The position numbers and the translations under genes are program-made. A stretch of 64,000 nt of DNA from Sphaerolaimus hirsutus (Eukaryota > Nematoda > Chromadorea > Monhysterida > Sphaerolaimidae). The notes beneath the pieces are model-generated. The model was not told where the DNA came from. It ran no database searches and saw only the letters and a list, made by a program, of their open reading frames with translations. The stretch lies in the NCBI GenBank assembly GCA_964036195.1, contig OZ038452.1, positions 22,579,785-22,643,784 on the forward strand. The letters run 5' to 3'. Position 1 is the stretch's first letter, and every line of letters begins with the position of its first letter. Shown here in pieces: positions 1 through 61,501 of this stretch.

Positions 1-455
1 CGGTCTGACTGTACCGCGGCGTGATGAAGTCGTCATCATCGTCCTGCAGTTTACAACGCTAAGTTTACTGTTTCATGTAAAGAGAACTTAAAAAGAAGTT
101 TACTACATCTGCGCATGCACATGGTAAACTGCAAACTTTGTGCTTGTAGGCATTCATAAATGTGTTTGGAACGGATTGCAGTTTACTTGAATGAGTTATG
201 CCCCAGTAATTGCGTTTGACATATACATTATTTTGGTGAACTGACATGCATTCAAAGCTGATTTATGACGTTTCCAGCACACAGTTTGCAGTTCAGCGTG
301 TGTACCCAAGTTAAATTAACCTCCCAGTCGTCCCACTTCACCTTGGCGCGCCCATTTTCTTTTTTCACGCGTTCTTCGTGCAGGCTCCTTTTGCTTTTGG
401 ACGCCTTGCTCTTCAGCGCCACGTGTCGCTCGTACTCGAGCTTTGCCTGAGACAT
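1..455 (-). CDS. Left-edge partial gene, charged protein of unknown family
   Basis: Two exons are visible on the minus strand. Exon 455-321 opens with ATG and encodes 45 residues rich in Lys, Glu and Arg (MSQAKLEYERHV... to ...KVKWDDWE). It ends at a donor GAG|GTTAAT. The next exon starts at 43 after an acceptor ...AACTGCAG and encodes an acidic run DDDDDFITPRYSQT before leaving the window. Both junctions are phase 0. An acceptor-like CTCAG a few bases inside the presumed start means 455 may instead lie within an internal exon. No family is recognised. It points away from gene A, with about 1.9 kb of repeat-rich DNA between their starts. Confidence 0.5.
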
Positions 456-2383
456 ATTTCAAAGTAGTGTTTTGCAGTGACAATTACACAGTGTTTTAAA
501 ACACAGTGTGTTTCAAATTCATGTATACAGCAAGACTCGCTGGTGGATTTTAGAACGGTACAAATCGTGGAATGTGTCTATATAGTTACTGCTTGAAAGA
601 TGAAATGTGTGGGTTCAAGCAAATCATGTTTACTGTGAGAACCCATATCCCGTGAAAGTCTGGGGTTTGGCATTCCCGATCCCCATCCCAATCCCCATCC
701 CCATCCCCATCCCTTCTAAGTAAATTCCGTTTTAACCGTACTGAAAATAACACACTGTTTTTAAACACAGTGTGTTCCAAATAGAGGATGCATTTATGTT
801 CTGGCAACCCATAGCAACGCTTGGTTCGCTAGAGAGTTTTGAATATAGAAATAGTGCAACGTGTGTATATAGTTACTGCTTGAAACATGATAGATGTGGG
901 TTCAAGTCCCTATCCCGATCCCCATTCGTATGCCGATCCCGATCCCCATTCGTATGCCAATCCCGATCCCCATCCCGATCCCCATTCGTATGCCGATCCC
1001 GATCCCCATCCCGATCCCCATCCCGATAAGTAAATTCCCTTTGAACCGTTTTGAAAATAACACACTGTTTTTAACACAGTGTGTTCCAAATAACGGGAAG
1101 CTTGCCGTGTGGGCCTACACACAACTCGCTTAAATCTGTTGGAGAAATCAATTTGTATTGTAGAAATAGTGGAATGTGTGTATATAATTTGTGCTTGAAA
1201 CATGAAAGAAGCGGGTTCAAGCAAATCACGTTTACTGTGAGGAACGTGATTCCCATCCCGATTCCCATGCCCATCCCGATCCCAATCCCGATCCCGATCC
1301 CGATCCCGAAAACTCAATTCCCCTTGAATTCTACTGACAATGACACACTGTTTAAGTACAGTGCGTTTCAAATAAATTTTCGCTGTAATATTTTCATGTA
1401 AATACACGAATATTTGCACAATTTGTTTTGCTGTATGGAAGAAATCATGCAAGGTGTCTACAGTGTGTGCTTGAAACATGAAAGATTTGGGTTCAAGTCC
1501 CTATCCCAATCCCCATCCCGATCCCCATCCCGATCCCCATCCCGATCACAATCCCCATCCCGATCCCCATCCCGATAAGTAAATTCCCTTTGAACCGTAT
1601 TGAAAATAACACACTGTTTTTAACACAGTGTGTTCAAAATATTATGGGAAGCTTGTACGTGTGGGCCTACACACGACTCGCTAGAATCTCCATTTGTATT
1701 GTAGAAATAGTGGAATGTGCGTATATAAATGTGTGCTTGAAACATGAAAGAAGCGGGTTCAAGCAAATCACGTTTACTGTGAGGAACGTGATTCCCATCC
1801 CGATCCCCATCCCGATCCCCATCCCGATCCCAATCCCGATCCCGATCCCGATCCCGAAAACTCAATCCCCTTTGAATCCTACTGACAATGACACACTGTT
1901 TAACTACAGTGCGTTTCAAATAAATTTTCGCTGTAATATTTTCATGTAAATACACGAATATTTCCAGATTTATAGTGTTTTGCTGTATGGAAGAAATCGT
2001 GCAAGGTGTCTACAGTGTGTGCTTGAAACATGAAAGATTTGGGTTCAAGCCAAAAATGTCCAAAACATTTCAACGTGAGAATGACACACGGTTGTTAAAA
2101 ACCGCGTGTTTCAAATAATAGAAGGTAACTCAACCTGTCAACTGCACACAGGTATTTTTGGCATGACATTCATGTGTACAGTGCGTGCTTGAAACATGAA
2201 TGATGTGGGTTCAAGCAAAAAATGTCCAAAATTTAAACGTCCAAAATTTAAATGTCCAAAAGTCAAACGTCACCTTCTCAGTCAGCGTCAGATCATACTC
2301 CGATGGCGGGCGGGCAGTCTGAAAAAAATTTAAGTCGGAAGTGCGCACACGTCTAACGTGTCATACAACAGAATAAAAGCAGT
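456..2383. repeat. Divergent intergenic region with GATCCC minisatellite, hairpins and a ~550-bp tandem duplication
   Basis: The region separates two divergent genes. It contains tracts of the word CCCATCCCGATC at about 680-712, 905-1026, 1249-1308, 1498-1577 and 1793-1856. Short perfect hairpins of the form AACACACTGT...ACAGTGTGTT recur near 490-510, 750-782, 1060-1090 and 1605-1635. A shorter motif GCTTGAAACATGA...GGTTCAAGC also recurs. A stretch of about 550 bp is tandemly duplicated: GTGTGGGCCTACACAC occurs near 1108 and 1659, and GCAAGGTGTCTACAGTG near 1449 and 2000. At 2220-2270 a short AACGTCCAAAATTT repeat follows. Apparent open frames here are repeat translations (Ile-Pro, Asp-Arg), not genes. 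Confidence 0.8.
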
Positions 2384-3416
2384 ATGCCTAGCCTAACTGA
2401 ACAACTTAATTCACTGGCAGTTGGGAACAAGAGCGTCATGTCGCAGCAAGGGCAGCAATCCAGCGGGCCTTACGCTGCGCAACAGTCGCAGTCCGATTTC
2501 AGTCGCACTTTCTCACATGGCATGTTCCAGTTTCCCGCCACAACGAACACCTCAGCCTACCCCTTTCCACCACCGCCCCCAAACAGGTGCTTGTGTACAC
2601 ATTTCAGTATCGTTTCTCTAAAGCTACCTGCCTATCAAGAACCAATTAAAATTTAAACAGCACATTCTAATAAAGAATGTGCTCCAAATAGTGACGTATG
2701 ATCGTTTTGGACAAGGATTTACGCAACAACATTCTGCTTGAGACTGCCACCAAACACTAAAAATGCATGCCATGATCATTTTCCCTGAAACATGACATTA
2801 GCGGGTTTCACTTTTCACACTGCTAAATGCTTTTTGTGATTGCAGGTGCAGCAAACAGTTCTTATGTGATAAGCTTTGTGTATGAGAAAATGTAACAGTG
2901 TGTACACAAGCACAGTTTTCGTTTTCCGGTACCCGGTGCGTCTACACCCAATCAAACAACACAAGTGCAAAGCGGAACTTCAGTGTCCACAGCGGAAGGC
3001 ATGAGTATTGACAGGAGTGAGGAGGATGCAGGCCCCAGAATGACACCATTTCAAGCTGTTAGTTTACAGTGCAGTAAAAACTGACCATGTTGACAAAAAT
3101 TTGTCAAAGTTGATCACGTGTTATTCTTCAAGAAATACGGTTTTTTCCCATTTCTTTCAAAATGCAGATGGATGAGCTCATCAACTTCACGAAAACCACC
3201 GAGAACAACATCGTACACGTGAACACGCAAGTGCAGAAACTGGTGAACACAGTGAACCAGTTTACGGGCAAGATGCATATGGCCAGTAAAGCTACGGAGG
3301 TTCTGTTGGAACACACTAAGTTGCTCGAAAAGAAAGAGAAGGCTTATGAGCGCATGGTGACAGAGCTCGTTCCGCGTGACCTGCAGCGTACCCATCCTGT
3401 CAATCGCTACATGTGA
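2384..3416 (+). CDS. Gene A: 197-residue protein with Q/S/P-rich N-terminus and helical C-terminus, unknown family
   Basis: Three exons are inferred: 2384-2586, 2916-3057 and 3168-3416, totalling 594 nt. The junctions are phase-consistent: donor AACAG|GTGCTT to acceptor AAGCACAG, and donor CAAGCT|GTTAGT to acceptor AAAATGCAG. Residues 1-60 are Gln/Ser-rich with little predicted structure, and a five-proline run lies at 62-66. Residues 68-115 are Ser/Thr-rich and end in an acidic patch. Residues 116-197 look like a long amphipathic helix or coiled coil (MDELINFTKTTENNIV... to ...EKKEKAYERMVTE). I recognise no family. A poly(A) signal AATAAA at 3500-3505 lies inside the terminal exon of gene B on the other strand, so the two 3' ends overlap. 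A role beside the transposase is only inference from position. Confidence 0.6.
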
Positions 3417-3464
3417 AACACTGAACCAACTGATTCCCCCCTTTTATACAGAGAACTGTGATGT

Positions 3465-6400
3465 TCAGAAAGTACTGCTTAAAAGTGAACCGTTCTTGTA
3501 ATAAATGTCTCGGAAAGCGCAACAGAACTGCAAACTCACTTTACTATTGTCAAAATTCAAATTTCGCTTCACGTCGGACGCTGTGGGCGTGGCTGTGTCA
3601 GCGGGTTTGCCCGGCGGTGCGGTCCGGACAGGCTCGGCGGGCTTGGCGGGCTCGGCGGGCATGTCGGGCTCGGCATTCTCGGGTGGGTTCTGCTTATCCG
3701 CCCACCACGGAACACGCTCGTTTGCACCCTGAAAAAATGAGAAATGTTGAAAGAATTTTGCATTAGAAAAAGCTTTAAAGTAGGCAGTAGCGCATGCACA
3801 CGCTAGTTTACTGCCACATGTAGGTAAACTGATAAAGCAGCTTTGAACGCATTTCAGTTCACTGAAATGGTTTATTCATTGACTGCAGTTGCCAGAGACA
3901 TCACTGTATGAAACGCAAATGCGTTATAAGTTGAGGTATCAGTTTACAAAAATGTTGCGGTAAAGTAGTGTGTGCATGACCATTAGTACAACAGAAGCTG
4001 GATTACAGGGAAGCTAACTAACACCAAAGAATGACACCGAAAATGAGGGAAAAAAGGTATAGATGGTGCATGTACTTCAGCGATGTACATGCTTAATAAT
4101 TAGTTGAAATCAGAATCCACCTTCCTTTCACCAACACCGGGAAAGTGCACAGTTAATAGTCCTAGAAGCTACAAAAAACTTTAAATGGTAAGTGCCACTT
4201 ACAGTTAAACTTACACTGTCGAACGGCCTACCTGCCATTCAGAAAGTTTTTCGAAAAAAGTTAACAGTAAAATGGTAAACAGTGTCGGGCTAACGATATC
4301 CATCAGGCGACGCGGAAGCGACAATGTGCGGTGGTAAATTGGAAAGGGGCAAAACGGGCCCGGTGTCCTCGTCGTGTGCCGAATCCAACCGTCGTCACCG
4401 GGACCCGAGTGAACCCAGCCCTGGCCCTCGTCCAAAACATCTGCACAAAGAGCACGTTACAATGAATGTTTCGTTTCCATGTTAAAAAGACAGTTAGAAA
4501 AGAGTACCGTCTTTGTACATGGCCGGCAACGGGGTAGTGCACGTGGGCATGGCCAACTCGTTCCGGATTTCTTGCAGGGTCTGCGAAATAGGAGAAACAT
4601 TTTGAGAAAATGTTTTGCAAAAGGAACTTAGCCATGTAGAATTTTGTAAATACAAAATTATAAAATCAGAGCAGTTGAAGCCAGTTTCGATTCAGCCAAT
4701 GTAATTCTCACTTTGTAAGAAACAATTAAAATTTTAAGACAGTGAAAAAGTGGGCATTTTGATCGCTGAAAAATATATATATGGCACACACTGAGACATT
4801 TTTGATTCCAAGAATATACACCTTTCTAAGAACCAATTAAAATTGTCAGCCAGTGAAACAGTGAGAAATTTGATGGCTGAAAAATATATATATGGCACAC
4901 ACTGAGACATTTTCGATTCCATCAATCTACACCTTTCTAAGAACCAATTAAAATTGTGAGCCAGTGAAACAGTGAGAATTTTGATGGCTGAAAAATATAT
5001 ATATGGCACACACTGAGACATTTTTGATCCCAACTTCTGATGCATGAGGTGAACAATTTTCAAAAGAGAAATATGGGAAAAAGTGATTTTACAGAAGGAT
5101 TTTGGTATAACAAAAATTTAAATATGGAACCCACTTAGACATTTTTTGATTCCAAACATACCTGCAGAATGTGCAAAATTTTCAAAACAGAAACATGGTG
5201 AAATTTTATTTCACATGAAACATTTTGATTATACACAAATATAAATATGGAAGCCACTTAGACACTTTCGATTCCAACGGAATATGCAGAAGGTGAAAAA
5301 TTTTCAAAAGAGAAACATGTGAAAAATGGATCTCACATGAAACATTTTGGTTGAACAAAACTATATATGGAACCCTGTCAGACACTTTTTGATTTCACAC
5401 ATATACGCAGAGTTTGCCAAAACTTAGAAACGGAATTATGGGAAAAAGTCATTTTACATGACCGATTTTTGGTATAACAAAAATATAAATATGAGCCCAT
5501 TTCCCTACTTTTTTGATTAGTATACGTCTCCATATTTCACCAAAAAACAATCGTACTGAACTAACTTCGGCGGTGAGTGTGCCCTTCACCTTCTGCACGC
5601 CACTGCTTTTCGGTTGCCGGTCAGTGCGCTCTTCTGCCACGATCGGATCGCCATACTGAAATACGTAAGAGTACATGTATTGAAGAATTTACAAAACTGA
5701 ACATTCTTATATTGAAACTTCCGCATACTTAAAATTTACATTTAAAGAAAAAAAAGTGCAAAAAGGATGAAAGTAAAGAAGTAAACTTACTTCATTCAGA
5801 CGGCCAGTTCTGTACTCGCACGTCCTGTTGTGCTCCTCCCTCAAGCGCTTCTTTTCCGCAATCTTCCCGGGGCTTTCCGGCGGAATTGGTAGGCCGGCCT
5901 CCATCGCCGCGCGCTCTTCCTCATCCTGCAACACATTCAGAAACGTCTAAAACATGTCTCAAGAACACTGAAAGAATTCTTACTGAACGTAAACTAACAT
6001 AAATACCGTGACACCGCGGCTTGTCACAAACGAAGAGCGCCCACTTTCGCTTTGGCTTCTCGGCTGCGGCAGCGTCTTGGCCAACTGTCGGCGTCGAAGG
6101 CTTGGCCTTCTCGGCTGTGGCAGTGTCTTGGCAAACTGTCGGCGTCGGGGACCGCGAACCCCCAACAACGACAGTTTTTGTTTTCAGTTTCTTCTGTTGC
6201 ACGGGCGCCGGCAATTCCTTGGCGGGCGGTACGACGGGCGCGGGCGCGGGCGCGGCCGCGGGCGCGGCCGCGGGCGCGGGCGCGGGCGCGGGCATGGACA
6301 CGGAAGCCGTAGTGCTTGCAGCGGGTGCAACCACTGCGGACGGCACAAGGGGACCACCGTACACGTTCGTGGCTGCCTCACGTGCCTGCCGTTGCAGCTC

Positions 6401-7589
6401 CTGCTGCAAAGTGACAGTGTGTGTGTGAGATCAAACTATCAGTTTACATCTACATGTTACATAATGGGTAAAAGGTGCTACAGTATGTCTGTCACAGTGT
6501 GCAAAGTTACACTGTCATGGCAACATCAGTTTACATCTACTTTTTACATAAGTGGTGAAAACAGCAACAGTAGTTCACGTTGCGCAAACTTTCATGAAAG
6601 TGTACAGTGAGGTAATGCCTGAAAGAGAACGTATTCAAATAAAGAAAAAATGACAAACCATTTTTTTCTCTTTCAATTGCAGCCTCTTCTTGTCTCTGCG
6701 CCGCTTCGCCCCGATTCTGTCATTTTCCAACTTTCTGAGCCTTCTTTGCTCCTCCATCGACAATTTCTGCTGGCGCGCTCTTTCCTCCTCGCGCGCTTTT
6801 TCCTGCTCCTCCAAACGGTCACCGTCAGCCGGGACTTCCGGCTCAGCCGGAGAGTCCTGACTCGCGAACAAATCCTGAAAAGGAACATTGTGTACACTTT
6901 TGACACGGTGGAAAGAGAATTCCGCATAGTTGAAACAAATGAAATGTGAGTTTACGAAAAAGCACAGAAGTTTGCTAAATTAGAAATGAATTTAGACAAA
7001 TTTCAAATAAAGAATAAACTGTGTGTGTAGAAAAAGTTCAGAAACCCATACAAATATAAGTAGCAAACCTGCGACAAAACCCTGCCAAACGAATGTGCGA
7101 GGTGATCGTCGGGGACAAGCACGCGCTGCGGCTCGGAAATGTCGCGCTGAGAACTCTGCGCAGCCTGCCCTCTGGTGCGCATGTTTGTGCCTCGGCCACG
7201 CACGGGCGGTCCAGTCGGAACGGTCTGAAGTGGGGCAAACGATTTGTAAACATTGGTTGGCTTATCTTGGATTGTAAATATCGCGTTGGCTTGTAAACAT
7301 TCGCAAATTGTAGATAAATTGGCAGATGTCCAAAACACACTTGTACTCAAACAAAAATGATAACTAGAAAATGAATGAAAAGAAATGGTCAGATAACCAA
7401 AGAAATCGGATGAGTAACCTGTTCTGGGGGCTGGCTCTCACTTTTCTGCTTTGGCGGCCGTCCACGTTTGTTTCCATTTTTGCCTTTGCCGCCATCCGAA
7501 GTCGTTTCCGCGGTCGCGGAAACGTTTTGCGATCGGCCGCGCGCCATACCGCCCAAAGTTCGGACCATTTTCGACGCGAAATCAATCAA
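3465..7589 (-). CDS. Gene B: ~561-residue charged protein with AT-hook and basic coiled coil, unknown family
   Basis: Nine exons on the minus strand fit in frame: 7589-7419, 7224-7069, 6874-6659, 6403-6032, 5925-5791, 5655-5566, 4580-4508, 4440-4232 and 3728-3465. All junctions are phase 0 except the phase-1 junction between exons 7 and 8. Donors include GTAAGT (exon 5), GTTAGT (exon 6) and GTTTGC/GTTTGT. Residues 41-47 read KRGRPPK, a typical AT-hook core. Residues 130-180 are a Glu/Arg/Lys helix; KLENDRIGAKRRRDKKR places Asn and Arg eight apart as bZIP basic regions do, but this is a weak match. Exon 4 carries an Ala-Pro repeat, and exon 9 is rich in PAEPAKPAEP. The exon 4 and exon 8 donors are the least certain. 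A DNA-binding partner of the transposase, the role of the Myb-like protein in other Harbingers, is plausible but unproven. Confidence 0.55.
3500..3505 (+). promoter_or_regulatory. Poly(A) signal for gene A
   Basis: AATAAA lies 84 nt after the gene A stop. It falls within the last coding exon of gene B on the opposite strand, so the two transcripts should overlap tail to tail. Confidence 0.45.
4735..5480. repeat. 111-bp tandem repeats in intron 6 of gene B
   Basis: The marker GCTGAAAAATATATATATGG recurs at about 4765, 4876 and 4987, a spacing of 111 bp. More diverged units continue to about 5480, marked by AAATATGG...CACTTAGACA. The whole array lies in the intron between 5566 and 4580. Open frames inside it are repeat translations. 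Confidence 0.75.
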
Positions 7590-7820
7590 ACGGTCTATTT
7601 TTCACTTTTCCACAAAATTTTCGCTTTTTATTTCTTATCTGTGAAAGATATGGATTTGTGACAAAAAAAAGTGACACGTCGTGATACAATTTTATGTTAT
7701 TCATGGTTACTTTTTTTAATGACATGTTTCATTTCTGGCTACATGCCAGAAATGTCTGGCATATGGCCAGAAATCTGAAATATCGATTGACAAAAACTGT
7801 CCCCAAAAAAACGTTTCAAA
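7590..7820. promoter_or_regulatory. 231-bp bidirectional promoter between gene B and the transposase, with palindrome
   Basis: The two start codons lie head to head. At 7733-7773 the motif TTTCTGGC and its complement GCCAGAAA alternate (TTTCTGGC..GCCAGAAA..TCTGGC..GCCAGAAA), giving nested palindromes. Such a site could bind a dimeric regulator or the transposase itself; that is inference. Confidence 0.4.
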
Positions 7821-10311
7821 ATGGCGCAAGATGAATCCATTTTGGGACAAATGCAAAGAATGAACGAAGCGCTAGAGCGGAATTTGGATGGAACTGCGCC
7901 ACTAACGCACAATCAGAAGAGACAAATTTTAGCCGCTTTTTTGGCAGTCGGGAACACGTTGTTTTCGTATGATGTGGACAACGACGACGAAGAACAAGAG
8001 CAGGAACAGCAGAATGCCGCACAAGAACAGGGTGATCACGGCAGGAAAAAGTACATGACACCGTATTTACTAGAAAGGGCGCGCTCCAGGGGCAATTACT
8101 GGCGAGCTGTTATTGCCTGCAAGAACACCGATCCAGCATGGTTTTACAAACTGTGCAGGGTTCGTTGTTTCACAATTTCTGTTATTTACGTAAAATATAC
8201 AGACGTATATAACATCACTTACTGTGTTGTGACATTTTCATGTTATTGTTTACAACAACATTGCAATCGAACAGTAAACTGATATTTATGAATGAACTCA
8301 GTTTACCGATAACGTTCACAATGATTACAAATTAATTACAGCTGTGGCCAACTGAATTCGAACAGCTGCACGCGATGCTTACAGCTGTCGACCCTGAAAC
8401 TGGTGAACAGTACCTGAGGACACGAGATGTAAGAAGACACATCGCTGTAGTGACAACCGAAATGCGACTGTTTTACTTTCTGTATACATGCGCAAACGGC
8501 CGGGAAGTTGAAGATTGTGCCGGCCAGTCACAGGTGATACCATTTTTCATGCTTTTAGATTGCTTTATAGTTCATTGTATTTTGGAAAAACATTTACAGA
8601 TTTCCGGCGCTACGATTAGAACGATTATTGACGAAGTGTCCACCGGAATAGTGAAAGTTTTGAAGGACCACTTGAAACCTATGGGGAGTGATTTAGGGCA
8701 AATGAAAGATTTCGCGCAGCAATACTGGAAACTGTGGCAGATGCCGAACTGTGTGGGGAGTCTGGATGGCAAACACATCCGTATTCGCAAACCCGCTGGT
8801 AAGTACATATCATTTTACGCATTCTACTTTTGCCCTCATGTGTGTTGTTTCCAGTAAACATAAACATGGTGAGTCGTATGCAACGTCACGGTAAACTAAG
8901 CGTCGCATTTGCGACGCTTGCGACGCTTGCGACGCGTGCGTCGCCTTCAATCAGAAATAGTCGCCAGTTTACCAAGGTTGCAAATTTTTTTGTGAAAACG
9001 TCGCTTTTCGTCGCATTTTGCGTCGCAAACGTCGCAAAATCGTCGCTTTTGCTTGAGTTTAACCGCAACCCCCACCGATTTGAAAGTAACTTCATTTGGG
9101 TCATGGGAATGTTGTGCAAATGATTTTTGGATGTACTTGTAGAGAAAAAAATTGCGCTTCTTCTGACGTACCTGGCTTCTCATAAAAGTGATCCAAAAAA
9201 AAGTTATGATTTTTTTTAAAAAAGGGCCAAATTGCGCGACGAAATGGCGACGGTCTGGCGACGGTCTGGCGACTGTAGAAAAATGACTAAATTCACAGTG
9301 ATGGGAAACTGTGCAGTGAGGTGGAAATGTTTACAGTTACAAAAGTAAATGAAAAACGCCTTGCAGAGGGTGGAACGAGATACTGGTGCTACAAGGGCTT
9401 CTCGTCGATTATACTGTTCATCAGCGCCAGCGCAGATTTGAAAATTCAGTACGTGGACATCGGTATGCCGGGGTCACAAGCAGATGGTGCTGTGCTGATC
9501 ACGTCTGATTTCGGGCAGGATTTGATGTGAGTTTACATCCTTTTTGACATGTTCCAATGAGGTGCTATACATTTACACATGATAAAAGTGATACATTTAC
9601 ACAGACATGGCAGAATGCTTATGGCGCCACCGTGCTTGCTGCCCGGTGCAGATGCCAACGAACCTGCAAATACCATTCCGAGTTATTTTGTGGGTGATCA
9701 AGCGTTCGCGTTGCGCAAGTGGTGTATGGTGCCATATGCGCTGCATGCAGATGACAGCCAGCGACACTTCAACTATCGGTGTGTTTGAATATTGTGAAAG
9801 AAGCGTTGTTTGGTAAAACTGAAATCTAAATTTGACTGCAACTACTGCAGCTTATCCCGAGCTAGGCGCACTGTCGAATGCGTCTTTGGTATTTTGGCTG
9901 GCAGATGGCGCATACTGCTGACCTGTATCGCGATGGAACCGCCGCGCGTACAAAGACTGGTTATGGCCTGTTGCCACCTGCACAATTGGCTGCGTGATAT
10001 CCGCGGGGAAAGTGCTGCCAACCAATTTGATGAAAATGGCGATGAAAAACCACAAGATGACCCGAACGACACTGTTGAGCGAAATGTAAGTTTACCTTGC
10101 ATATTCACTGTTACAATTCAACATCACATAAATTCATTCCCATACACAGCTGCAGTGGCGACCAGTGTACGACAACATGGATACGATCGATAACGTGCCA
10201 ATCCGAAGGGACGTTGACGAAAGAGATGCGCGCCCCATCAGGGATGCAATCAAGGAGTGGATGATGACGGACGCCGGTCGTGTTCCGTGGGTGAATCCCG
10301 CTGACTGCTGA
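7821..10311 (+). CDS. PIF/Harbinger DDE transposase, seven exons, apparently intact
   Basis: Exons are 7821-8159, 8342-8533, 8600-8798, 9367-9526, 9605-9778, 9851-10085 and 10156-10311 (the last could start at 10150). All join in frame, giving about 484 residues without stops. Donors include GTAAGT (exons 3 and 6) and GTGAGT (exon 4). The DDE_Tnp_4 landmarks are present: the first Asp in CVGSLDGKHIRIRKP (about residue 233), the second in YVDIGMPGSQADG (Asp 274 or 283), the FVGDQAF block, and the Glu in LSRARRTVECVFGIL (about 364). A helical acidic N-terminus of about 110 residues precedes the nuclease. The enzyme would excise and reinsert the element at a 3-bp target. It is divergently transcribed from gene B. 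Intactness suggests recent activity. Confidence 0.9.
8799..9366. repeat. GTCGCA-rich intron 3 of the transposase
   Basis: The longest intron of the transposase (568 bp) is packed with GCGACG/CGTCGC words, mainly at 8890-9050 and 9232-9275 (for example GACGCTTGCGACGCTTGCGA). No coding potential is seen. Confidence 0.6.
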
Positions 10312-11124
10312 ATTTGCAACTACGTTGAATATAAAAATCAAACTGAAATATTTCCGTTGCAGTGGCAGTTAGCATTAAAGTGGCACTGGAATGGTAAACT
10401 GATGTAACAAATACAAAAAATTCATTTTCATGCTATCTGCTACAGCTACACTTCATTTTTCGATTGCAACCGGTTATAATGGTTGTTATGTAGTACACTG
10501 TCGTTGAATGGACAATTTTCATTCACTATTCGATTTTTGGCTGATTTTTTCTTTTTTAATTGTGATTAAATCATAATTCGCAAAGTCTTTCGTTTCACGC
10601 CGCGAAAAATTGTGTGATGTGTGCAGCTAATGTTCCTCTTTCATGTGTGATTTTTTTTTCCGGATTCGGGCTTTCCGTTCACGTGCTAGTGATTTATTTG
10701 CGTTTAATTGAAATAAAATCATAAAAAATCGAAAGTTTATATTTCATGTCCGCTGTGTACACCAATCGATAGCGCAAAGAAAACTGATAATTTAGAACGT
10801 TTCAATAAACGAAAAAACGTAACAGGTGATTTTATAAAAATTTATTTCCACAAAAAAATGATAAATTCAATAAAAAATCCAATGTTGCACTTAAAAATAT
10901 TTTAAAAATTTTGACAACATCTACACAACGTACTGTACACGATGACGCAAAAAAATTGCATAAACAATGCTCCGTTCTTCCACAATTAAAGAAATTAGAA
11001 ATTAATGTTTACAGCGTAAATTCACATCACAGGCAAACTTGAAAAAAATAAAGATGGCGGCCTAAACTCCGCCCACTTTTACTATGCGTGAATTTAGCCG
11101 GTAAACTAAAAAATGGAGTTTACC
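10312..11124. other. Transposase 3' flank, AT-rich
   Basis: No gene is seen. A poly(A) signal AATAAA stands at 10712-10717, about 400 nt after the stop. The tail from 11040 is GC-richer and leads into the terminal repeat. Confidence 0.5.
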
Positions 11125-11168
11125 GCCAGTAAACTGAAAACGCCAGTAAACTAGTGTGCGCGGGGCCA
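11125..11168 (+). repeat. Right terminal/subterminal repeat of the Harbinger element
   Basis: GCCAGTAAACT occurs twice (11125-11135, 11142-11152) and runs into ACTAGTGTGCGCGGGGCCA. The trinucleotide TTA follows. The ACTAGTGTG core recurs at the ends of foldback elements near 34253-34441 and 61203-61745, and a variant (CTAGCGTGTG) at 49039-49200. Confidence 0.55.
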
Positions 11169-11313
11169 TTATGTACATGAGGTACATCATTCCGAAGGGG
11201 GGGGGTATTTCGAGGGGGGGGTTTATTATTTCCCCAGCCCATTTTGAGGGGGGGTTAATTCGAGGGGGGGGTTAATTCAAGGGGGGGATAATTCGAGGTA
11301 ATACGGTACATAC
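11169..11313. mobile_element. Right half of a TACCGTATTT-family MITE, cut by an assembly gap
   Basis: Runs of GGGGGGTATTTCGAG and GGTTAATTCGAGG end with TTCGAGGTAATACGGTA at 11308. The other half is missing or lies in the gap. Confidence 0.6.
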
Positions 11314-11513
11314 NNNNNNNNNNNNNNNNNNNNNNNNNNNNNNNNNNNNNNNNNNNNNNNNNNNNNNNNNNNNNNNNNNNNNNNNNNNNNNNNNNNNNNN
11401 NNNNNNNNNNNNNNNNNNNNNNNNNNNNNNNNNNNNNNNNNNNNNNNNNNNNNNNNNNNNNNNNNNNNNNNNNNNNNNNNNNNNNNNNNNNNNNNNNNNN
11501 NNNNNNNNNNNNN
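11314..11513. other. Assembly gap (200 N)
   Basis: Exactly 200 N bases, so the length is probably a placeholder. Confidence 0.99.
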
Positions 11514-12467: not shown

Positions 12468-13066
12468 AAGGCCGTATCCAGGGGGGGGGGGGCGGGGGGG
12501 CTGAGACGTGAAAACCCCCAGAAAATGCAACTTTTACAGTAATTTTTCACCGTTTATGCAAAAATTTTGCGCGCAAGCGCGCATTTTCCCCTTAAACTCC
12601 TGCTTTTTTCAGTGGATCGCTCCCCGCGGACACATATCCCTGAAAATGCAATCAAAAATGCGCTTCTAGCTGTATATGTATGTATATTTACATAAATATA
12701 TGGCGGTTTCTGATGCTAGCGCCAACGCAAATGGCGCCATGGCGTGGCGCCTACGAATGGTGCCAGCACCATGGTGCCATTCCGTCACTGTATATGTAAA
12801 ATTTTAGGGGGGGGGGCGCCCCCCCCCCGTTCGCCGGGCTCTATAAACAAGCAGCCCCCCCCGCTCAAAAATCTTAGATACGTCCCTGCCCCCCCCCCCG
12901 CTCAAAAATCTTGGATACGTCCCTGCCCCCCCCCGCTCAAAAATCTTGGATACGTCCCTGCCCCCCCCCGCTCAAAAATCTTGGATACGTCCCTGCCCCC
13001 CCCCCGCTCAAAAATCTTGGATACGTCCCTGCCCCCCCCCGCTCAAAAATCCTGGATACGTCCCTG
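12468..13066. mobile_element. hAT-like MITE (GTATCCAGG type) with a ~37-bp tandem array
   Basis: The ends are TAAGGCCGTATCCAGG and CCTGGATACGTCCCTG. Flanking poly-C makes the target duplication unreadable. The interior includes a GGCGCCATGGCG word patch near 12730-12780. The right part (about 12853-13066) is a tandem array of roughly six units containing CTCAAAAATCTTGGATACGT, that is, an amplified terminal sequence. Confidence 0.65.
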
Positions 13067-13590
13067 CCCCCGTAAAAGTGGCTTTTTCCGCCGCCGCGGG
13101 CAGCCAGGAACTGTTTCATTGGTATGCTGGTGGCCTGACTTGGCTCTGAGATGTCTCGCTGCCCGCCGCTGCCGCAATGCAATGGTCCACATGTCTATTT
13201 GCGACTGCCCCCCCACCCCCCCCCCCCCAAACATTGTGCACACAATTGATATCCCGATTTGTTTTGCGTATATTCACTGTTTATGATGCAATGCGAGATA
13301 ATGATCGCTGTCGGAGCTAATAAAAGATTTTGCCAGCTTTTCAATTGTGTCTTTTTAGTTTCCACCCAGCGTTCGCACGTGTTTGCGGTATATACCATTC
13401 TCAGTCAGTGTGTTATTACGAATTTAACGCCGCGCCGTCGGCGATATTTTTCGGCGATATTTTTTCGTCTCGCCTACTGCGTCAACAGTTTTTTATACAG
13501 TTCCATTATTTTTTCGGCATAGAAAAAACCTCAACCTGGACTCTGTATTTTATTGGGTGTGTTCCATAAGTTTCGCCCCCCCCCCCACCC
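13067..13590. other. Non-coding, nothing recognised
   Basis: Poly-C tracts and unique-looking DNA. No gene is supported. Confidence 0.3.
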
Positions 13591-26704: not shown

Positions 26705-26915
26705 TTCGCTGGAATGAACAACGATGGAAAAAACACAGAAATTGAACACAGAAACTCATTGAGTTTCTGTGTTTTTGTTTTACACAGAAACACGGAAACT
26801 CATAAATTTTGAAAAACTCAAAACTCAAATGAGTTTTTTTTTGGAGAACACAGAAACACGGAAACACGGAAACACAGAAAAGTTTTTTTGAGTTTTTGTG
26901 TTTTTTTTCAGCGAA
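26705..26915. repeat. AACACAGAAAC-word repeat with weak inverted ends
   Basis: TTCGCTGGAA and TTTTTCAGCGAA bracket a block of GAAACACGGAAACAC and AAACTCA words. A similar block at 27640-27870 (ACTCGAGTTTT, AAAACTCAAAACAC) lacks clear ends. Confidence 0.45.
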
Positions 26916-27083
26916 GCGGTTGAATGCACATTAATTCAGTTAAACTAAACAAGATAAGATAAGCATCTATAGTATGTAAATATGTAGATAATGTATTCAT
27001 ATTTTATTAGGGTACAAAAAATAAATTCAAGATGGCATGCACATCTCATGGTGGATTTGACAATTTAAGTTTCGACATTTTAG

Positions 27084-29343: not shown

Positions 29344-30528
29344 TAGTGATGGAATGGCGCCATGGCGCTGGACGCTCAGACTTGGCTGTATTTCAAAGCG
29401 TTTTTTTCTGAGGAAACGCGGTAGTTACCTCAGTAAGGGGTGGGACCATATTTGCAATACGTATCTGCTTATACCCTATGCTTGAATCATTCCACTCAGG
29501 AGTTATTTTTTGCCAGACTTTTTTCAGGGGAAATATAAAAGGGACAAATTATTCAAGCAAATATGGTACTGTATTACCTCGAATTAACCCACCCACTTCG
29601 AATTAACCCCCCTGAAAATGGGCTGGGGAAATAATAAACCCCCCTCGAAATACCCCCCCCCCCTTCAGAATGATGTACATCATATACGTAATAAATATGC
29701 CATGTATGCAATGTAGATGATGTATGTTATTGCTAATTTGCATTGCAGCTACACATATACTAGTTTGTGTAGCTGTCTACGTTTTTTTGTCCAAATATAC
29801 CCCGTTTGGACACATGTATTACTTGTTTTGGGTACGCAAATGCCTACTTTTTACTATGATCCTTACGAAAATTTCTGACAAAATAATAAAAAACTCTCAA
29901 ATAACCCCCCATTGAATTAACCCCCCTCAAATTTTGCTGGTGAAATAATATAACCCCATGGGGGTATTTTGAGGTCATATGGTATGTTTATTGCATTATA
30001 GTGTATTGCATTGTTTATATGCATCTATGGTATTATTGAATTTTAGTGCATCTGCCTGTAAATATGAGTATGTTACAAGAATTAATAGATAACTGATATA
30101 ATTTCATAAATGTTCTGGGGAAATAATAGACCCCGCTCGAATAAGCCCCCTTGAATCAACCCCCTCAAAATTTACTGACAAAGTAATAAACCCCTGTTAT
30201 TTCCAGGCAGTATTGTACATTGTACCTTTCATTTCAAGACAGGTTTTGTGCCTAGAATCACCGTCAGAAAAGTAGTATAGGACATTGCCCTTCTGTAAAT
30301 GCTTTCATGATGATAAACAGGCTGAACTGCTGAATTTTAGTGTTGGCGCCATTTTGGCGCCCCGCACCATTGTTACTGGCGCCCTTTGGCGCCCGGCGCC
30401 ATTTTTTCAGGTGGCGCCATGGCCCCATTGGCGCCTGGCGCCATTTTCTCTGGCGCCCTGTGTAGCCCGGCGCCAATTTTTTGAATGGCGCCATGGCGCC
30501 ATTGGCGCCTGGCGCTTTTCCATCGCTA
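29344..30528. mobile_element. hAT-type MITE, GGCGCC word, 8-bp target duplication ATTTGCAC, with nested insertion
   Basis: It begins TAGTGATGGAATGGCGCC and ends GGCGCTTTTCCATCGCTA. ATTTGCAC flanks it at 29336-29343 and 30529-30536. The right part (30340-30515) is dense GGCGCCATGG. A TACCGTATTT-type element sits inside at about 29566-29984, with another fragment at 30113-30213. Confidence 0.85.
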
Positions 30529-31450: not shown

Positions 31451-34400
31451 ATGGAATCAACATTGTGTGACAAAAAGAAAGGAAAAATCGAGATTAGCTT
31501 GAATGGAGAAAATGACGAGAAACTGGCCTATTTAGAGACAACTGAACCAGTATCAATACCAAAATGTGAGTTCCAAATTGAAAATTCTGTGGTAAACATG
31601 TTATCAAAACACAGAAAATAATCGTTCACAAATTTCAGCTACTTTATGCAGCCCGTCAACAGGTATTGTTATAAATTTTCGTTTTCGTTTTCTTTCGACC
31701 AACCCAATTCATAACCATCTCATTTCACAACCATCTCATTTCACAACCATCTCAATTCACAACCAAGTCACCATCTCTTATTTCCGGTCGGCTGTGGCTT
31801 GCCCTACTGTTGTGTCTCGCAACCACATGCGCGAATGGAATCAGACAGAACATTGCTGTAACATTGAACTGCATGGTAAACAACACTTGGGTGAAGATGG
31901 AGGCAAAGATGCATCAGAAAGCTATTTTTGTAGAGAATGACACCTTTATGGAAAATTTGTGGATGCAGAATGAAACAAATGAATATGGAGGGGCATGTTC
32001 CTTGGCACCTGCGGAAGAAAAGTTGTATGAAGTGAGTGATTTCCATTAATAGGGTGCCTGACAACTTAGCTTGCACATCAAGGTTTACAGCTCCTATACC
32101 CTGTAAGATGTCCGTAAGTGTACAGAGTAAATGAAAAAATGATTCAGCACAATAAGATTACATTTTTAATCATTTTGAATGTTCAAAATTTTGCATTGTG
32201 GTTTAAATGGCCATACAGTGTGTGCAGTAAGTTATCAGGTATCACAAAACGTGCCCTTTCTGCATAATGTTTTTGAAACATGGTATTTGACCTCTGCAGG
32301 GTCCATTGTTGTGGGATGTAACCCACCAGTCACAATTATTTGCAGTTGTCTATTGGGCTGGTGTCTCATGATGATATTGGTAGCATGGTTCACATGCACA
32401 TAATTTTCTGCATGTTATGTGACCCATACGTTTCATGATGATATTGGGGGCATGGTTCACACACATAATTTTTTGGATGTCAAGTACTCCAGATGTTTAG
32501 TAAACTGCAAATTGGTGGAATGATGGTGTGATATATAGACCATACAGACCAATCTCATCATAACACCACCCGCAAGTTTTCTAACTGGACTGCCTTCTGG
32601 CTGGTTGTCAGATAGATATGGGGCCAAGAAATTGCTATTAATTTCTATTTTATTTCATACCATTGGAGCTTTGCTGACACCCGTTGCTGCACTGTGGTTC
32701 AGTTTTTGGACTGTTTTACTATGTAGAGGACTCATTGGACTTGGTCAGGTAATGTATTTGTTTCTGAACCCAGTGAATTTATGTTTCAAAATCATTTAAC
32801 CACTAAATTTGATTTTATGCCCAATTTTATCTGTTTCTTCACTTACAGGGAATACAAATGCCAGCCATAAGCACAGCCATATCAAGTTGGTACCCTACAA
32901 ATGAGAAAAGTAGTGTGGTTGCTTTGTGGACTGCTGGAAATCAAATTAGCTACTTATTTGGCAGCCCTATTGCTGCGTACCTGTGCAAACTTCACATTTG
33001 GCCTGCATTTTTCTATGCTCAAGGTAACAAAAAATTTGAGTGATCTGGTACAATTTTTCCGAGTAAACAGTGGAATAAAGCACACCATCTTTTACCATAT
33101 AAAACATGCAACTTTAATTTGGCACTGACCCAAGTAAACGTTTTTCTTAAAGAGATCCGACTTACCTAATAAGTTTCACCCTGAATCTATCTAATGGAAT
33201 TTTAGATGTACCTAAGTACTTCTATTTAACCAGTAAAAATTATATAGCAATCAATCAAGTTTAATTTCAATGGAATGATTACTGTGGTGTATTTTAATCT
33301 GTATTTTACTTACTCCCAGGTACACTTGGTATTCTTTGGTGCATCGTTTGGTACTTTTTCTTTACAAATTCACCAGTCAAAAATCAATGGATAAATGATG
33401 ATGAAAAACATTATATTTTGAAGAGGACACATACGTTTCAGTTTAAAAACAGAAAGGATAGTTCTTTTTGTTCCAGTAACTAGCAGTTCACCCTGGCATC
33501 GTGCCAACTATAACTAATATCTGCAATTTTTGTAAGATAATGAGAAGTTGATTTCTTTTAGACAATCCAACACTTATGATTCAAAAATGACGACTGTGAT
33601 CAGCAAATTTATCACTGTCCCGCAAATGTCAGTGTGAACTGAGAGAAGCGTTCCAAAACTCTCAGGAGATTGATATAAGTTTAAATATAAGGAAATATAA
33701 AAAATCATATATTTATATATGTTTTTTCCAGGTTTTTCTGCAGAGTTTTAATGTCATCTACCGTATCTCTTCTAATAGAACGGCATACCTCCAATAGAAC
33801 GGCACCTCCAATAGAACGGCAGGTTTTGGCACGTTTTTGCATTCACGAAAACAATAGAACGGCAGCCTCCAATTGAACGGCAGGTTCAATTATGTTGGGA
33901 GTGTGCCAAAAATAAAGCAAAAATAGATGATGGGAACATTCAAAGCATTCAAATAAGTGTTAAATCTCAAATTGATGCTCTGATATAAAAATATTGCTGA
34001 AGGTTCATTTAAAAACAAAAACAATATTTGAAATGAGAATTCTCTGGAAAAACTGATGAAAAAATAGAACGGCAGCCTCCAATAGAACGGCACCTCTAAT
34101 AGAACGGCAGGTGAAAAAGTTGATGACAAAAATAGAATGGCACTCTTCTTTTAGAAGAAGTACGGTATTCTATTAGAAGAAAGTATGAAAATATATCATT
34201 TTTACTTTTCACATAAATCACCACCATTCTACAATGCACTATTGGTCTAGTGCACACTAGTTTTCACACGAAATTTCGAAAACTCATAAATAAGCTTTAA
34301 AATTGTTTGAGTTTTCCACAATGAGTCATTTTTAATCTCCGTCAACTGTAGTTAACGGCCACATCATTGTATAAAAGTCAAATGCGTTCTAAGCTAATTT

Positions 34401-36239
34401 GTGAGTTTTCGAAATTTCGTGTGAAAACTAGTGTGCGCAGGCATATTCTGTTTCCATCACAGTTGGCAACAGCGAGTATCCCATGGAAGCAAATGTTCTC
34501 GTCGCCGCCGATTTACGCCAACATGCTGGCAAATTTTGCAGCTGCATTCAATATGACTTTGTTCCAGTCATATTTACCGAGTTATTATCACACTGTACTT
34601 TTTCTCGACTTAGAGATGGTAGGTTTTGTTTGGAATTGTTTTAAAATTTGTAACATCTTGCCATTTTATTGTAAGAATTTAGAGAGACTTTAATTTTCTG
34701 GAAACGATCTTGGTGTAATTACATTATCGTCTTTTGTGTGTGAGGGTTGGGTAAAAAGGCAAGTCCAAATGGTTTTCGGTTTGGTATACTTGGCGAGCCG
34801 CAAAGTATGTATGTGTATAATCCTACCATAATTTAATGAATGAAACATTATAATAAATTTCAAAATTAATTATTCGATGATAAAAACGAGATATCATAAT
34901 GAAAAAATGTACAATTTTTGGTTCATTATTCGGATGGGTTACGGTAGGTTTCCATACTAAGTGTGATGTCCGCCGAATAAAACTGGGATTAGCCAGTGAA
35001 AACTAGATCTTCATAATGTTAATTACAATTAAAAACGGTCAAATGGGAATGATTGACAGCTTCCATAATGGCATTCGTTTCCAAACTTAAAAAATATTTC
35101 CTGTCCTGCATAACCTAATTTAAAAAACTATTTCAGAATGGCTTCATGTCAGCATTACCATATTTGATTCAATTTCTATCCAAAATGGCAATGAGTGTAG
35201 TCAGTGACCGACTGAAAACAGCAGGAATTTTGAGCACTACAGCTTCATGCAAAATTTTCAACGGTTTAGGTCATATTGGCGGCGGTGCCTTTCTAATTCT
35301 GGCGACAATTTTTGGCTGTGAATTAAAAATTTTCCCTATCATTTGCATTTGCATGGCTTTTGCCGTATTTCCCGGTGTTATCAGCGGCTTTATGACTAGC
35401 TGGGTGAGATATTTTAGACTTTTTGAAAGTACACGTGTACAGAAAACGTATTTTGAGCTGCATGTTTTCTTTTGGAAATGACACATCTAAACTGCCACTA
35501 TCTCAATTTCAGGTGAGTTTAGCACCTGCATACAGTGGAATCATTGCCGGTTTTAGCAGGTTTTCTGCACAGGGTGGTTCGGTGCTTGCCCCATATGTCG
35601 TCAGTTATTTTGTAGCTGCGGTATGTTTCTTTGATGTTAAATTTCGATTGATAAATTGTTGAGGATTTCACATGATTATTACGTGCAGTATTTTCTCGAA
35701 ATAACCCCGTCCAGCCCTGCTGCTTAGGCTAGGCTTAGGCTTAAACTGAGAGGAAGTCTTTGATTGAAGGATATCAATACATTACCTAGTGGTATTTCGA
35801 GGAGGGTTTATTCAACAATTGTATGCCAATAATCCACTTTACATCCAAGTGAATGTCAAGAATTGTATACGATAATCTTCAACTTTATTTTACAGGGTTC
35901 ATTGGAAGAATGGCGGATTGTATACTTAATAAGTGCTGCATTGCTTTTTCTATCTCAGATTTGTTACTGTTTCATGGCTTCAGGTCAGTTGGTGAATATT
36001 TCTGATACTCAAATGTGTTTATAAATTATGGTTACAAATGTGGTGAATTGGTTAATTTTTTACAAATGTGGTGAATTTTTTCATTTTCAGGTGATGTACA
36101 ATCATGGGCAATGCCAACAACTGACACAGGGATGACACTGGATGATGCGTTGAAGCCAAAAACTTCAACTGCATTAAGCAATGAAGTAAAAAATGAAAAG
36201 AGTTTGAAAGATTTGAAGAAGGCAAAGTTTTCATTGTGA
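31451..36239 (+). CDS. SLC17-family (MFS) anion/organic-anion transporter
   Basis: Clear exons are 31451-31565, 31768-32031, 32548-32748, 32849-33023, 33320-about 33475, 34463-34618, 35137-35403, 35513-35620, 35896-35983 and 36091-36239, plus a possible 24-nt exon at 31639-31662. Family landmarks are CANGIRQNIAVTLNCMVN in TM1, a glycosylated first loop, GWLSDRYGAKKLLL, RGLIGLGQGIQMPAISTAISSWYPTNEKS, IPWKQMFSS and NGFMSALPYLIQF. SLC17 proteins (NPT, sialin, VGLUT types) are 12-TM plasma or vesicle membrane carriers; the substrate cannot be told. The junctions into the exons at 31768 and 34463 do not match in phase with the obvious donors, and the usual segment after loop 1 looks short, so a micro-exon is missing or the gene is damaged. 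A poly(A) signal lies at 36355-36360. Confidence 0.8.
31709..31765. repeat. Short tandem repeat just upstream of an SLC17 exon
   Basis: About three to four units of CACAACCATCTCATTT stand directly before the AG used for the TM1 exon, replacing a normal pyrimidine tract. Confidence 0.6.
33759..34167. mobile_element. TACCGTATTT-family MITE, ATAGAACGGC subtype, in an SLC17 intron
   Basis: The ends are TACCGTATCTCTTCTAATAG and CTTTTAGAAGAAGTACGGTA, with AATAGAACGGCACCTCC words at both sides. Confidence 0.8.
34253..34441. mobile_element. Foldback MITE with ACTAGTGTG-type ends, in an SLC17 intron
   Basis: GCACACTAGTTTTCACACGA pairs with CGTGTGAAAACTAGTGTGCG. The terminal core equals the right end of the Harbinger element. 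It lies 21 bp upstream of the next exon. Confidence 0.7.
34778..34978. mobile_element. Foldback MITE, TACTCGGCG family, in an SLC17 intron
   Basis: GTATACTTGGCGAGCCGCAA..ATAATCCTACCATAAT mirrors GGTTACGGTAGG..GTCCGCCGAATA. It is a copy of 25955-26163. Confidence 0.55.
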
Positions 36240-47240: not shown

Positions 47241-48498
47241 TAGTGATGGAAAAGCGCCATGGCGCTGGCGCCTGGCGCTAGCGCCAAAGAAAAAAGCGCC
47301 ATGGCGCTTTTGGCGCTTGGCGCCTTTTTGCTGTGGCGCCATTGGCGCTTGGCGCTGGGGTTTGGAAAAGCGCCATGGCGCTTTTGACGCTTGGCGCTAT
47401 GACGCCGTGGCGCCATTGGCGCTTGGCGCTAGTGTTTTAAAAAGCGCCAAAAAAGCGCCAAGGAGTTTACTCAAAATTCATCATTATTTTATGCAGAAAG
47501 ACCTGTGAAGTATGATTTACATAAGTATATGTGCTACTGTCAGTGTATTCCCGGATCAATATACCCTATTCTTGATTACTTTATAAACAATTTACTTGTG
47601 ATTGCATGGGTGTTCAACATTTGTCCCATCTAATAAGAATTATGTAAGACTTTATGTGACTATTCATCGGACTCGTAACACTCTTCACATAGGTTTTAGC
47701 TCAATCGCTATACTGAGCTCGTTCCTTCCAGTTTTGTTTGAGCAGGGCCAAAGGACCCTGAAAAGTGTGAAGTTGAATAATAAACATCATCCAATATTTC
47801 ATAAATACAACTTTGTTAAGTGTCATGCAAAATGTCAAAAGTTCAATCAAAAATTTTTCTTTTTTATTTTGATTGACATTTTACATCACATTTACTTCTT
47901 GACATTTGACACTTGATTTTACCGGGTGTGGAATCACTTTCTGAAGCCATTCCAACAATGGCAATCCAAAATTTGAAACCTCAAAATCCTATGTTCAAAA
48001 GTGACTAGCAAAACTAGAAACTGCAACATTCTTGTAGAAAAATCGAAAGTATTCCAAAAAAATTGAAAACTTCATTAGAAAATTATTTTTTGGGAAAAAC
48101 AGCTAAATTCCAAAAGTAATTTTTAAAAACCCCTAAAAAATCTTAGCACTTTTTACAGATGGTGTGCTATACCCAGCTGCAAAATATCAAGACAAAAAGA
48201 ACAAAAGTGACTGCAGTTGACTGTTATCTTGCGCCAAAAACAAATTAATAGCAGTGCATCAGCGTGGCTGCATATATGAGAAGCAAAATTTTTTTGGCGC
48301 TGGCGCTATTGGCGCTTGGCGCCAATATCCTCTGGCGCCATTGGCGCTTGGCGCCGTGGTTTAGAAAAGCGCCATGGCGCTTTTGGCGCTTGGCGCCATT
48401 TTGCTCTGGCGCCATTGGCGCTTGGCGCTGGGGTTCGGAAAAGCGCCATGGCGCTTTTGGCGCTTGGCGCCAAAGTCCTGGCGCTTTTTCCATCACTA
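47241..48498. mobile_element. hAT-type MITE, GGCGC word, 8-bp target duplication GTCCTGAC
   Basis: The ends TAGTGATGGAAAAGCGCCAT and GGCGCTTTTTCCATCACTA are near-perfect. GTCCTGAC stands at 47233-47240 and 48499-48506. Each side is about 200 bp of AAGCGCCATGGCGCTTTTGG and GGCGCTTGGCGC. The 47480-48290 core is unrelated AT-rich DNA without a gene. Confidence 0.9.
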
Positions 48499-61446: not shown

Positions 61447-61501
61447 ACAATGTTACAGTTATTGATGAGAATGGTTTGCATTTTCAGTTCATGTACTATT
61501 G

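What the first reader, a model, noticed from the sequence alone, without database searches (positions are those of the whole stretch)
1..11168. A possible four-gene Harbinger transposon with alternating, spliced genes
Described Harbinger elements usually carry a transposase and one Myb-like protein. Here an intact seven-exon transposase is followed leftwards by three spliced genes arranged tail to tail and head to head, plus shared internal motifs, up to and beyond the window's left edge. If all belong to one element it is unusually large and gene-rich for the superfamily.
Basis: partly seen in the sequence, partly recalled or inferred. Interest (0 to 1): 0.8.

Follow-up and report, generated by a model that had tools for sequence, protein, structure and literature searches.

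The report
Four-gene 17.7-kb Harbinger-type transposon
The left end of this window is part of a 17.7-kilobase jumping gene that carries an intact-looking transposase plus three other predicted genes of unknown kind and has dozens of close copies in the same genome, which makes it four to five times longer than the average described relative.

Summary
Confirmed and extended. Window 1-11167 is the right 63% of a 17,677-bp element (G000:C3:22573275-22590951) with four predicted spliced genes, 39 exons: C (-, mostly left of the window), B (+), A (-) and a HARBI1-like transposase (+) with an intact DDE triad. Both ends recur genome-wide: 38 of 87 listed transposase loci have an exact left end implying 17.0-18.5 kb, and 27 of 35 copies checked carry matching 3-bp target duplications, 25 of them AAT/ATT. 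Most listed B and C loci sit at near-constant distances within the unit. Against two decaying divergent copies dN/dS is lowest in the modelled frame in 7 of 7 comparisons (B 0.22, transposase 0.31-0.36, A 0.43-0.75, C 0.56-0.69). ANT targets fit the Pangu group, whose described autonomous candidates average 3.5 kb, mostly two ORFs. A and part of C had no detected homologs; B was not searched. The terminal-repeat core AGTTTAC recurs at 38 noncoding sites (2.5 expected) and is conserved above background, suggesting self-recognition. The window's own copy lacks a target duplication and its flanks look unrelated, so it may be recombinant or mis-joined. Host unidentified. New variant of a known kind.

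The parts
1..11167 (.). right 63% of the 17,677-bp element; the rest is G000:C3:22573275-22579784 (window coordinates -6509 to 0, locus L009 from base 3491)
7821..10311 (+). transposase gene, exons 7821-8159, 8342-8533, 8600-8798, 9367-9526, 9605-9778, 9851-10085, 10150-10311; 486 aa; catalytic D233, D283, E364
   Evidence: dN/dS 0.36 (235 codons) and 0.31 (476 codons) against two divergent copies
3465..7568 (-). gene A, exons 7419-7568, 7069-7224, 6659-6874, 5999-6403, 5791-5925, 5566-5655, 4508-4580, 4232-4440, 3465-3728; 565 aa, basic, one AT-hook-like KRGRPPK (motif name recalled), Ala/Pro-rich
   Evidence: dN/dS 0.75 (510 codons) and 0.43 (206 codons); no homolog found
2384..3416 (+). gene B, exons 2384-2586, 2916-3057, 3168-3416; 197 aa, last exon predicted as one long helix
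   Evidence: dN/dS 0.22 (188 codons, one divergent copy; absent from the other)
1..455 (-). 5' part of gene C: exon 1 321-455 and exon 2 (43 to -109); 18 further exons left of the window down to -5139; 1,064-aa model
   Evidence: dN/dS 0.56 and 0.69; no homolog of residues 225-700, no Pfam match
11146..11167 (+). right terminal repeat GTAAACTAGTGTGCGCGGGGCC (left partner GTGGCTGTACACGCTAGTTTAC at -6509; imperfect, best over the inner 13 bases)
11168..11170 (.). position of the 3-bp target duplication (ATT here; the left flank of this copy reads TTT, so no duplication in this copy)
11101..11152 (+). subterminal cluster of four AGTTTAC/GTAAACT motifs (starts 11101, 11117, 11129, 11146); 38 noncoding sites in the whole element
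674..2049 (.). internal tandem repeats in the intergenic region between C and B (TCCCGA/TCCCCA runs, partly within a 266-bp unit)
4711..5476 (.). tandem repeats of about 111 and 122 bp in the 985-bp intron of gene A

Best explanation
Shown: one mobile DNA unit of 17.7 kb with four predicted spliced genes, bounded by two recurring imperfect terminal repeats and, in most copies checked, by 3-bp target duplications of the ANT type; dozens of loci have both ends at about this spacing. Inferred: it moves by cut-and-paste with its own HARBI1-like DDE transposase; one or more of A, B and C stand in for the Myb/SANT partner of ordinary Harbingers as DNA-binding and nuclear-import factor and recognise the AGTTTAC core, which lies in both terminal repeats and is scattered over introns and intergenic DNA; B, with a long helical end, would be a multimerising partner; the same binding may also counter silencing. 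The confidence given is for the unit; for the inferred mechanism it is about 0.4.
For: Right end: 2,763 hits against 3 reversed controls. Left end: 278 against 0. 57 of 87 listed transposase loci have a listed exact left end on the same strand within 40 kb, 38 of them at an implied 17.0-18.5 kb. Target duplications in 27 of 35 copies (shuffled pairing: mean 13.7, maximum 23 in 10,000). Copies elsewhere are 98.6-100% identical to the window over the right 2.8 kb (loci L017, L018 and L020-L032). B and C at near-constant distances. Spot-checks of A, B and C pieces 15 of 15. dN/dS lower in the modelled frame than in either shifted frame in 7 of 7 gene-by-copy comparisons. Transposase: Pfam E 4.8e-26, 93 homologs, D, D and E conserved. 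AGTTTAC 15.5 times the expected number in noncoding DNA, and unchanged at 14 of 17 and 20 of 28 aligned sites against 183 of 407 and 308 of 677 anagram heptamers (p 0.002 and 0.006).
Against: No transcript data. Only the window copy was read in full, with two divergent copies; the other copies were read in pieces. A and C are weakly constrained (0.43-0.75), some shifted frames also fall slightly below 1 (lowest 0.84), and both divergent copies carry frameshifts or stops. Several splice sites are not conserved there. 8 of 35 copies, the window's included, lack matching duplications. 27 of 87 transposase loci lack a listed gene B and 16 of 96 B loci have neither a listed transposase nor a listed left end at the expected side. 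No domain supports DNA binding by A, B or C. A genome-wide search for gene A did not complete. Near-identical repeats can be mis-joined by an assembler.
Confidence: 0.9

Rival explanations
1. Only the transposase with the two ends is the real transposon; A, B and C are passengers captured once, carried passively and decaying.
For: 27 of 87 transposase loci lack a listed gene B. L012 shows that a 3.8-kb version with both ends exists. A and C have weak constraint.
Against: Most listed B and C loci keep near-constant distances to the rest. B has dN/dS 0.22 in one divergent copy and A 0.43 over 206 codons in the other. Most exons and splice sites are kept in copies about 85% identical, so the set predates the near-identical copies. 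No homolog of A or of part of C was found outside.
Confidence: 0.12
2. Two or more elements nested or adjacent, which only look like one.
For: Copies and fragments of the family do lie next to each other (L012, L014).
Against: The same pair of ends at an implied 17.0-18.5 kb in 38 loci, with different flanks and target duplications outside both ends in 27 of 35 copies checked.
Confidence: 0.02
3. Assembly artefact or contaminating DNA scaffolded into the host.
For: Scaffold gap at 11314-11513; the left and right flanks of the window copy resemble different repeats.
Against: Copies on many contigs with different flanks and target duplications; repeats found elsewhere in the window abut the element before the gap.
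Confidence: 0.03

Closest known systems
Pangu group of the PHIS superfamily (Han et al. 2015, PMC4482050; abstract and passages read)
   Same: DDE transposase of the same superfamily; ANT target duplications; short terminal repeats; Results report no known motif in the second ORF (the Discussion of the same paper instead lists Pangu with Myb/SANT)
   Different: Described autonomous candidates average about 3,487 bp, most with two ORFs; this is 17,677 bp with four spliced genes; the left terminus starts GT, where AG or GG is usual
PIF/Harbinger proper (PMC9179366, abstract and introduction read; PMC4482050, passages)
   Same: HARBI1-like transposase, 3-bp duplications, terminal repeats, short relatives in the genome
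   Different: No Myb/SANT protein detected; four genes; AWT instead of the classic TNA target (PMC12477816, passage); described autonomous candidates average about 4,124 bp
Harbinger-like elements with further proteins: HarbingerS (SET) and fungal TET+ PHISTA (PMC12730594, passages); MCi-5, a Harbinger-type transposase in elements with a Fanzor protein (PMC3627910, passages)
   Same: Harbinger-type transposase in elements with genes other than transposase plus Myb
   Different: No SET, TET or Fanzor match in Pfam here; four genes; 3-bp ANT duplications rather than TA (PHISTA) or a putative 6-bp one without clear terminal repeats (MCi-5)
VANDAL elements with VANC anti-silencing proteins (PMC5735166, passages read)
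   Same: Short motif enriched in introns, intergenic and terminal noncoding DNA of the element; tandem repeats in noncoding parts; accessory genes without known domain here
   Different: Another transposase superfamily, in plants (recalled); here binding and anti-silencing are untested; homology to VANC was not tested directly

Membership tests
PHIS (PIF/Harbinger) superfamily | DDE_Tnp_4 / HARBI1-type transposase with conserved D, D, E | tested here: met
   Pfam DDE_Tnp_4 E 4.8e-26; 93 homologs; D233 and E364 invariant, D283 nearly so, in an alignment of 11 (10 of the 93 hits plus this one)
PHIS (PIF/Harbinger) superfamily | 3-bp target-site duplication | tested here: met
   27 of 35 copies
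PHIS (PIF/Harbinger) superfamily | terminal inverted repeats | tested here: met
   Two recurring ends that share CACRCTAGTTTAC and are otherwise imperfect (sequences)
PIF/Harbinger group | second ORF with Myb/SANT domain | tested here: not met
   No Myb/SANT match for A, B or C in Pfam; a diverged one cannot be excluded
PIF/Harbinger group | TNA-type target site | tested here: not met
   AAT or ATT in 25 of 27 matching duplications, TTT and TAT in the other two
Pangu group | ANT target duplication | tested here: met
   25 of 27 matching duplications are AAT or ATT
Pangu group | placement in the Pangu clade of transposases | not tested
   no Pangu reference sequences were on hand
Pangu group | two ORFs, about 3.5 kb (usual, not strictly defining) | tested here: not met
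   four predicted genes, 17,677 bp
ISL2EU | YqaJ exonuclease as second protein | tested here: not met
   no YqaJ match for A, B or C
Spy | no target duplication, one ORF | tested here: not met
   3-bp duplications; four genes
VANC-like self-recognition system | element-wide short motif in noncoding DNA, conserved | tested here: met
VANC-like self-recognition system | motif bound by an element protein that removes silencing | not testable with these tools
   needs binding and methylation or chromatin assays

The most novel reading that the evidence does not exclude
The element is a PHIS transposon that carries its own sequence-specific self-recognition system: A or C binds AGTTTAC sites spread through introns and intergenic DNA and keeps the element open to expression, or competent for moving 17.7 kb, functionally parallel to but unrelated to the plant VANDAL/VANC system.
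Probability: 0.25. Interest if true: 0.85.

Novelty: new variant of a known kind. Interest (0 to 1): 0.62.

Why it matters
Described Harbinger-type elements are mostly small two-gene elements. This one indicates that a HARBI1-type transposase can move a multi-gene, intron-rich unit four to five times the average size, and that the Myb partner thought typical of the group may be replaced. The conserved dispersed motif makes self-recognition by a large eukaryotic transposon directly testable, and near-identical copies suggest recent activity.

Tried and rejected
Rejected: that the 11-kb stretch is complete (the left end is outside); that 11169-11171 is the target duplication; that A, B and C are unrelated host genes lying next to a small element; that A, B or C carries a recognisable Myb/SANT, SET, YqaJ or TET domain (Pfam; B had only sub-threshold hits such as COG6_N, E 0.012).

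Led nowhere: protein search for A and for residues 225-700 of C; viral-contig scan for C (A and B were not scanned); solved structures for the transposase; single-sequence fold of A exon 8 (mean pLDDT 64, one helix). The fold of B exon 3 gave one long helix and was not searched further. A look for an empty site of the window copy among the fetched loci found instead that its two flanks resemble different repeats. One search was a first dN/dS attempt with a frame-tracking error, replaced; two searches were failed scripts, replaced. The global alignment of the two ends came out shifted and was not used. In the paper searches I saw listings of at most 20 papers each with titles and starts of abstracts; none of those reports a four-gene Harbinger. 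Repbase Reports and most subscription journals are not held.
Full report
What the window holds. Window 1-11167 was checked by assembling exons between GT..AG sites. The transposase gene has seven exons and an open frame of 486 aa. Gene A has nine exons (565 aa, minus strand) and gene B three (197 aa, plus strand). The left-edge gene C was completed from locus L009, immediately left of the window: 20 exons, a 1,064-aa model, minus strand, ending at -5139. Coordinates of 0 and below count leftwards from the window's first base (0 is the base before it). The unit has 39 exons and 6,948 coding bases out of 17,677. All four are models without transcript evidence; frames are open by construction in this copy.

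Where the unit ends. The window lies in an assembly of 348 Mb in 762 contigs. Comparison with a second locus (L012) gave the left end: both share sequence from TGTGGCTGTACACGCTAGTTTACC onwards and differ before it. This left end has 278 matches with up to 3 mismatches, against 0 reversed. In the window's copy it lies at -6509, so the element is 17,677 bp. The 2,763 right-end matches far outnumber the transposase loci, and some lie in short elements of one to a few hundred bases, so the family probably has many short non-autonomous relatives.

It is one mobile unit. Of 12 stretches fetched blind at the predicted distance from other transposase copies, 11 hit the element's left part; 10 of these contain the end itself and one (L043) begins 133 bp inside it; one (L044) had no match, and its left end lies nearer, at an implied 10.1 kb. 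Of 87 listed transposase exon-6 loci, 57 have a listed exact left end on the same strand within 40 kb, and 38 of those imply 17.0-18.5 kb. Only 100 of the 278 left-end hits were listed, so this is a lower bound. In 35 copies (the window's and 34 others chosen because both ends were known; one of them implies 16.8 kb) 27 have identical 3-bp flanks: 15 AAT, 10 ATT, one TTT, one TAT. Random re-pairing gave 13.7 on average and at most 23 in 10,000 shuffles. The element proper is therefore GTGGCTG...GGGGCC. Copies elsewhere are 98.6-100% identical to the window over the right 2.8 kb (15 loci, L017, L018 and L020-L032). I read only the window copy and two divergent copies at full length.

The genes travel together. 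Of 96 listed gene-B loci, 43 have both a listed transposase downstream and a listed exact left end upstream, 18 only the former, 19 only the latter and 16 neither; 59 of the 61 transposase distances lie within 6.3-7.0 kb. Of 81 listed gene-C loci, 74 have gene B on the opposite strand within 12 kb, 68 of them at 3.9-4.9 kb. Pieces of B, C and A from five other copies matched in 15 of 15 cases at 96-100% identity. Gene A also adjoins the transposase in loci L013, L015 and L016. A genome-wide search for gene A did not complete. Conversely, 27 of 87 transposase loci lack a listed gene B 3-12 kb upstream. One of these, L012, is a 3.8-kb derivative with both ends and about 13.9 kb missing between -5698 and 8193; the others were not examined individually. 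All these lists hold only the best-scored candidates.

The genes are under constraint. Two divergent copies were fetched (C2:30.19 Mb and C4:13.0 Mb; identity in aligned noncoding DNA 87% and 85%). The first lacks the 3' part of the transposase, the second lacks B and parts of A and C. Most exons and splice sites are conserved; the exceptions are, in the first copy, the acceptors of C exon 3 and A exon 9, the donor of C exon 12 and the unaligned ends of A exon 3 and transposase exon 3, and in the second the acceptor of C exon 19, the donors of A exon 3 and transposase exon 5 and the unaligned ends of C exon 1 and A exon 4. dN/dS in the modelled frame, first and second copy: transposase 0.36 and 0.31; B 0.22; A 0.75 and 0.43; C 0.56 and 0.69. 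Shifted frames gave 0.84 to 1.9, higher than the modelled frame in 7 of 7 comparisons. Both copies carry frameshifting indels (for example 9 of 18 indels in C of the first copy) and stops, so they are decaying now, which raises these values. The case for A and C is weaker than for B and the transposase.

What it is. The transposase matches Pfam DDE_Tnp_4 (E 4.8e-26) and 93 proteins at 28-43% identity, of which the named ones are mostly HARBI1- or ALP1-like or unnamed DDE proteins of animals; the aligned triad is D233, D283, E364. Genes A and C have no Pfam match and no homolog in a search of 5.8 billion proteins (for A; for residues 225-700 of C), a search limited to relatives that share short exact words and are of similar length. 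B has only sub-threshold Pfam hits and was not searched there. Single-sequence folding of B exon 3 gave one long helix (mean pLDDT 87). A is basic (pI 9.3) and has an AT-hook-like KRGRPPK (motif name recalled). ANT duplications define the Pangu group in Han et al. 2015 (PMC4482050, abstract and passages read), whose autonomous candidates average about 3,487 bp, most with two ORFs. Autonomous Ectocarpus Harbingers, some of the ANT type, carry two tail-to-tail genes (PMC12477816, passages). Elements with a further protein are known (HarbingerS with SET and fungal TET+ PHISTA, PMC12730594, passages; MCi-5 with Fanzor, PMC3627910, passages). A review of giant transposons did not mention Harbinger or PIF in the passages or counts I saw (PMC6431247). 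In the listings of my literature searches no title or start of abstract reports a four-gene Harbinger, but the library lacks Repbase Reports and most subscription journals.

The internal motif. AGTTTAC, the inner core of both terminal repeats, occurs 40 times in the element and 16 times in the flanking sequence held (2.26 against 0.21 per kb). Thirty-eight sites are noncoding, where 2.46 are expected from dinucleotide content. In the divergent copies 14 of 17 and 20 of 28 aligned noncoding sites are unchanged, against 183 of 407 and 308 of 677 anagram heptamers (Fisher p 0.002 and 0.006). A comparable pattern, a short motif in introns and intergenic DNA bound by an element protein, is described for VANDAL21 and VANC21 in Arabidopsis (PMC5735166, passages).

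How it most likely works. Shown: ends, target duplications, co-inheritance, constraint, motif conservation. Inferred: cut-and-paste by the DDE transposase; A, B or C taking the place of the Myb/SANT partner; motif recognition aiding synapsis of a long element or countering silencing. None of the inferred steps was tested.

Caveats on this copy. The window's copy has TTT on the left and ATT on the right. Its left flank is 92% identical to window 26719-27066, which then continues differently from its right flank, and its right flank resembles other repeats, with other sequence before them. Either two copies recombined or the assembly joined two loci; a scaffold gap begins 146 bp beyond the right end. 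The host was not identified; one of eight window ORFs tested has a weak 7TM chemoreceptor match (window 39259-39573), which suggests an animal.

Noticed in passing
window 61204-61744: 541-bp short element with identical 25-bp terminal repeats GGCCCTACACACACTAGTTTTCACC and ATT on both sides; related terminal core, probably a non-autonomous relative.
   Followed up: partly
window 34244-34444: About 201-bp short element with the CACACTAGTTTTCAC core at one end, a matching core at the other and ATT on both sides.
   Followed up: partly
L012 494-1490: An inverted right-end fragment, 93-94% identical, probably of a sister subfamily, upstream of the deletion derivative.
   Followed up: no
G000:C3:2048527-2096168: Two copies of about 17.7-17.8 kb in opposite orientation about 12 kb apart, transposases outermost.
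   Followed up: no
L009 3491-3800 (window -6509 to about -6200): The left subterminal region is rich in GCGACGCGTCGC-like repeats, and CGACGC-type repeats also lie in transposase intron 3 (window 8899-9048).
   Followed up: no
window 30354-30515, 47291-47449, 48301-48473, 55844-56002, 57867-58036: Arrays of a 74-bp GGCGCC-rich unit at five places in the window.
   Followed up: no
window 12855-13071: 35-bp tandem array CCCCCCCCGCTCAAAAATCTTGGATACGTCCCTGC, six copies.
   Followed up: no
window 39259-39573 (-): Fragment matching Pfam 7TM_GPCR_Srx (E 1.5e-5).
   Followed up: no
window 11168-11313 and many fetched loci: Abundant repeat with runs such as GAGGGGGGGTTAATTC, often near element copies.
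   Followed up: no
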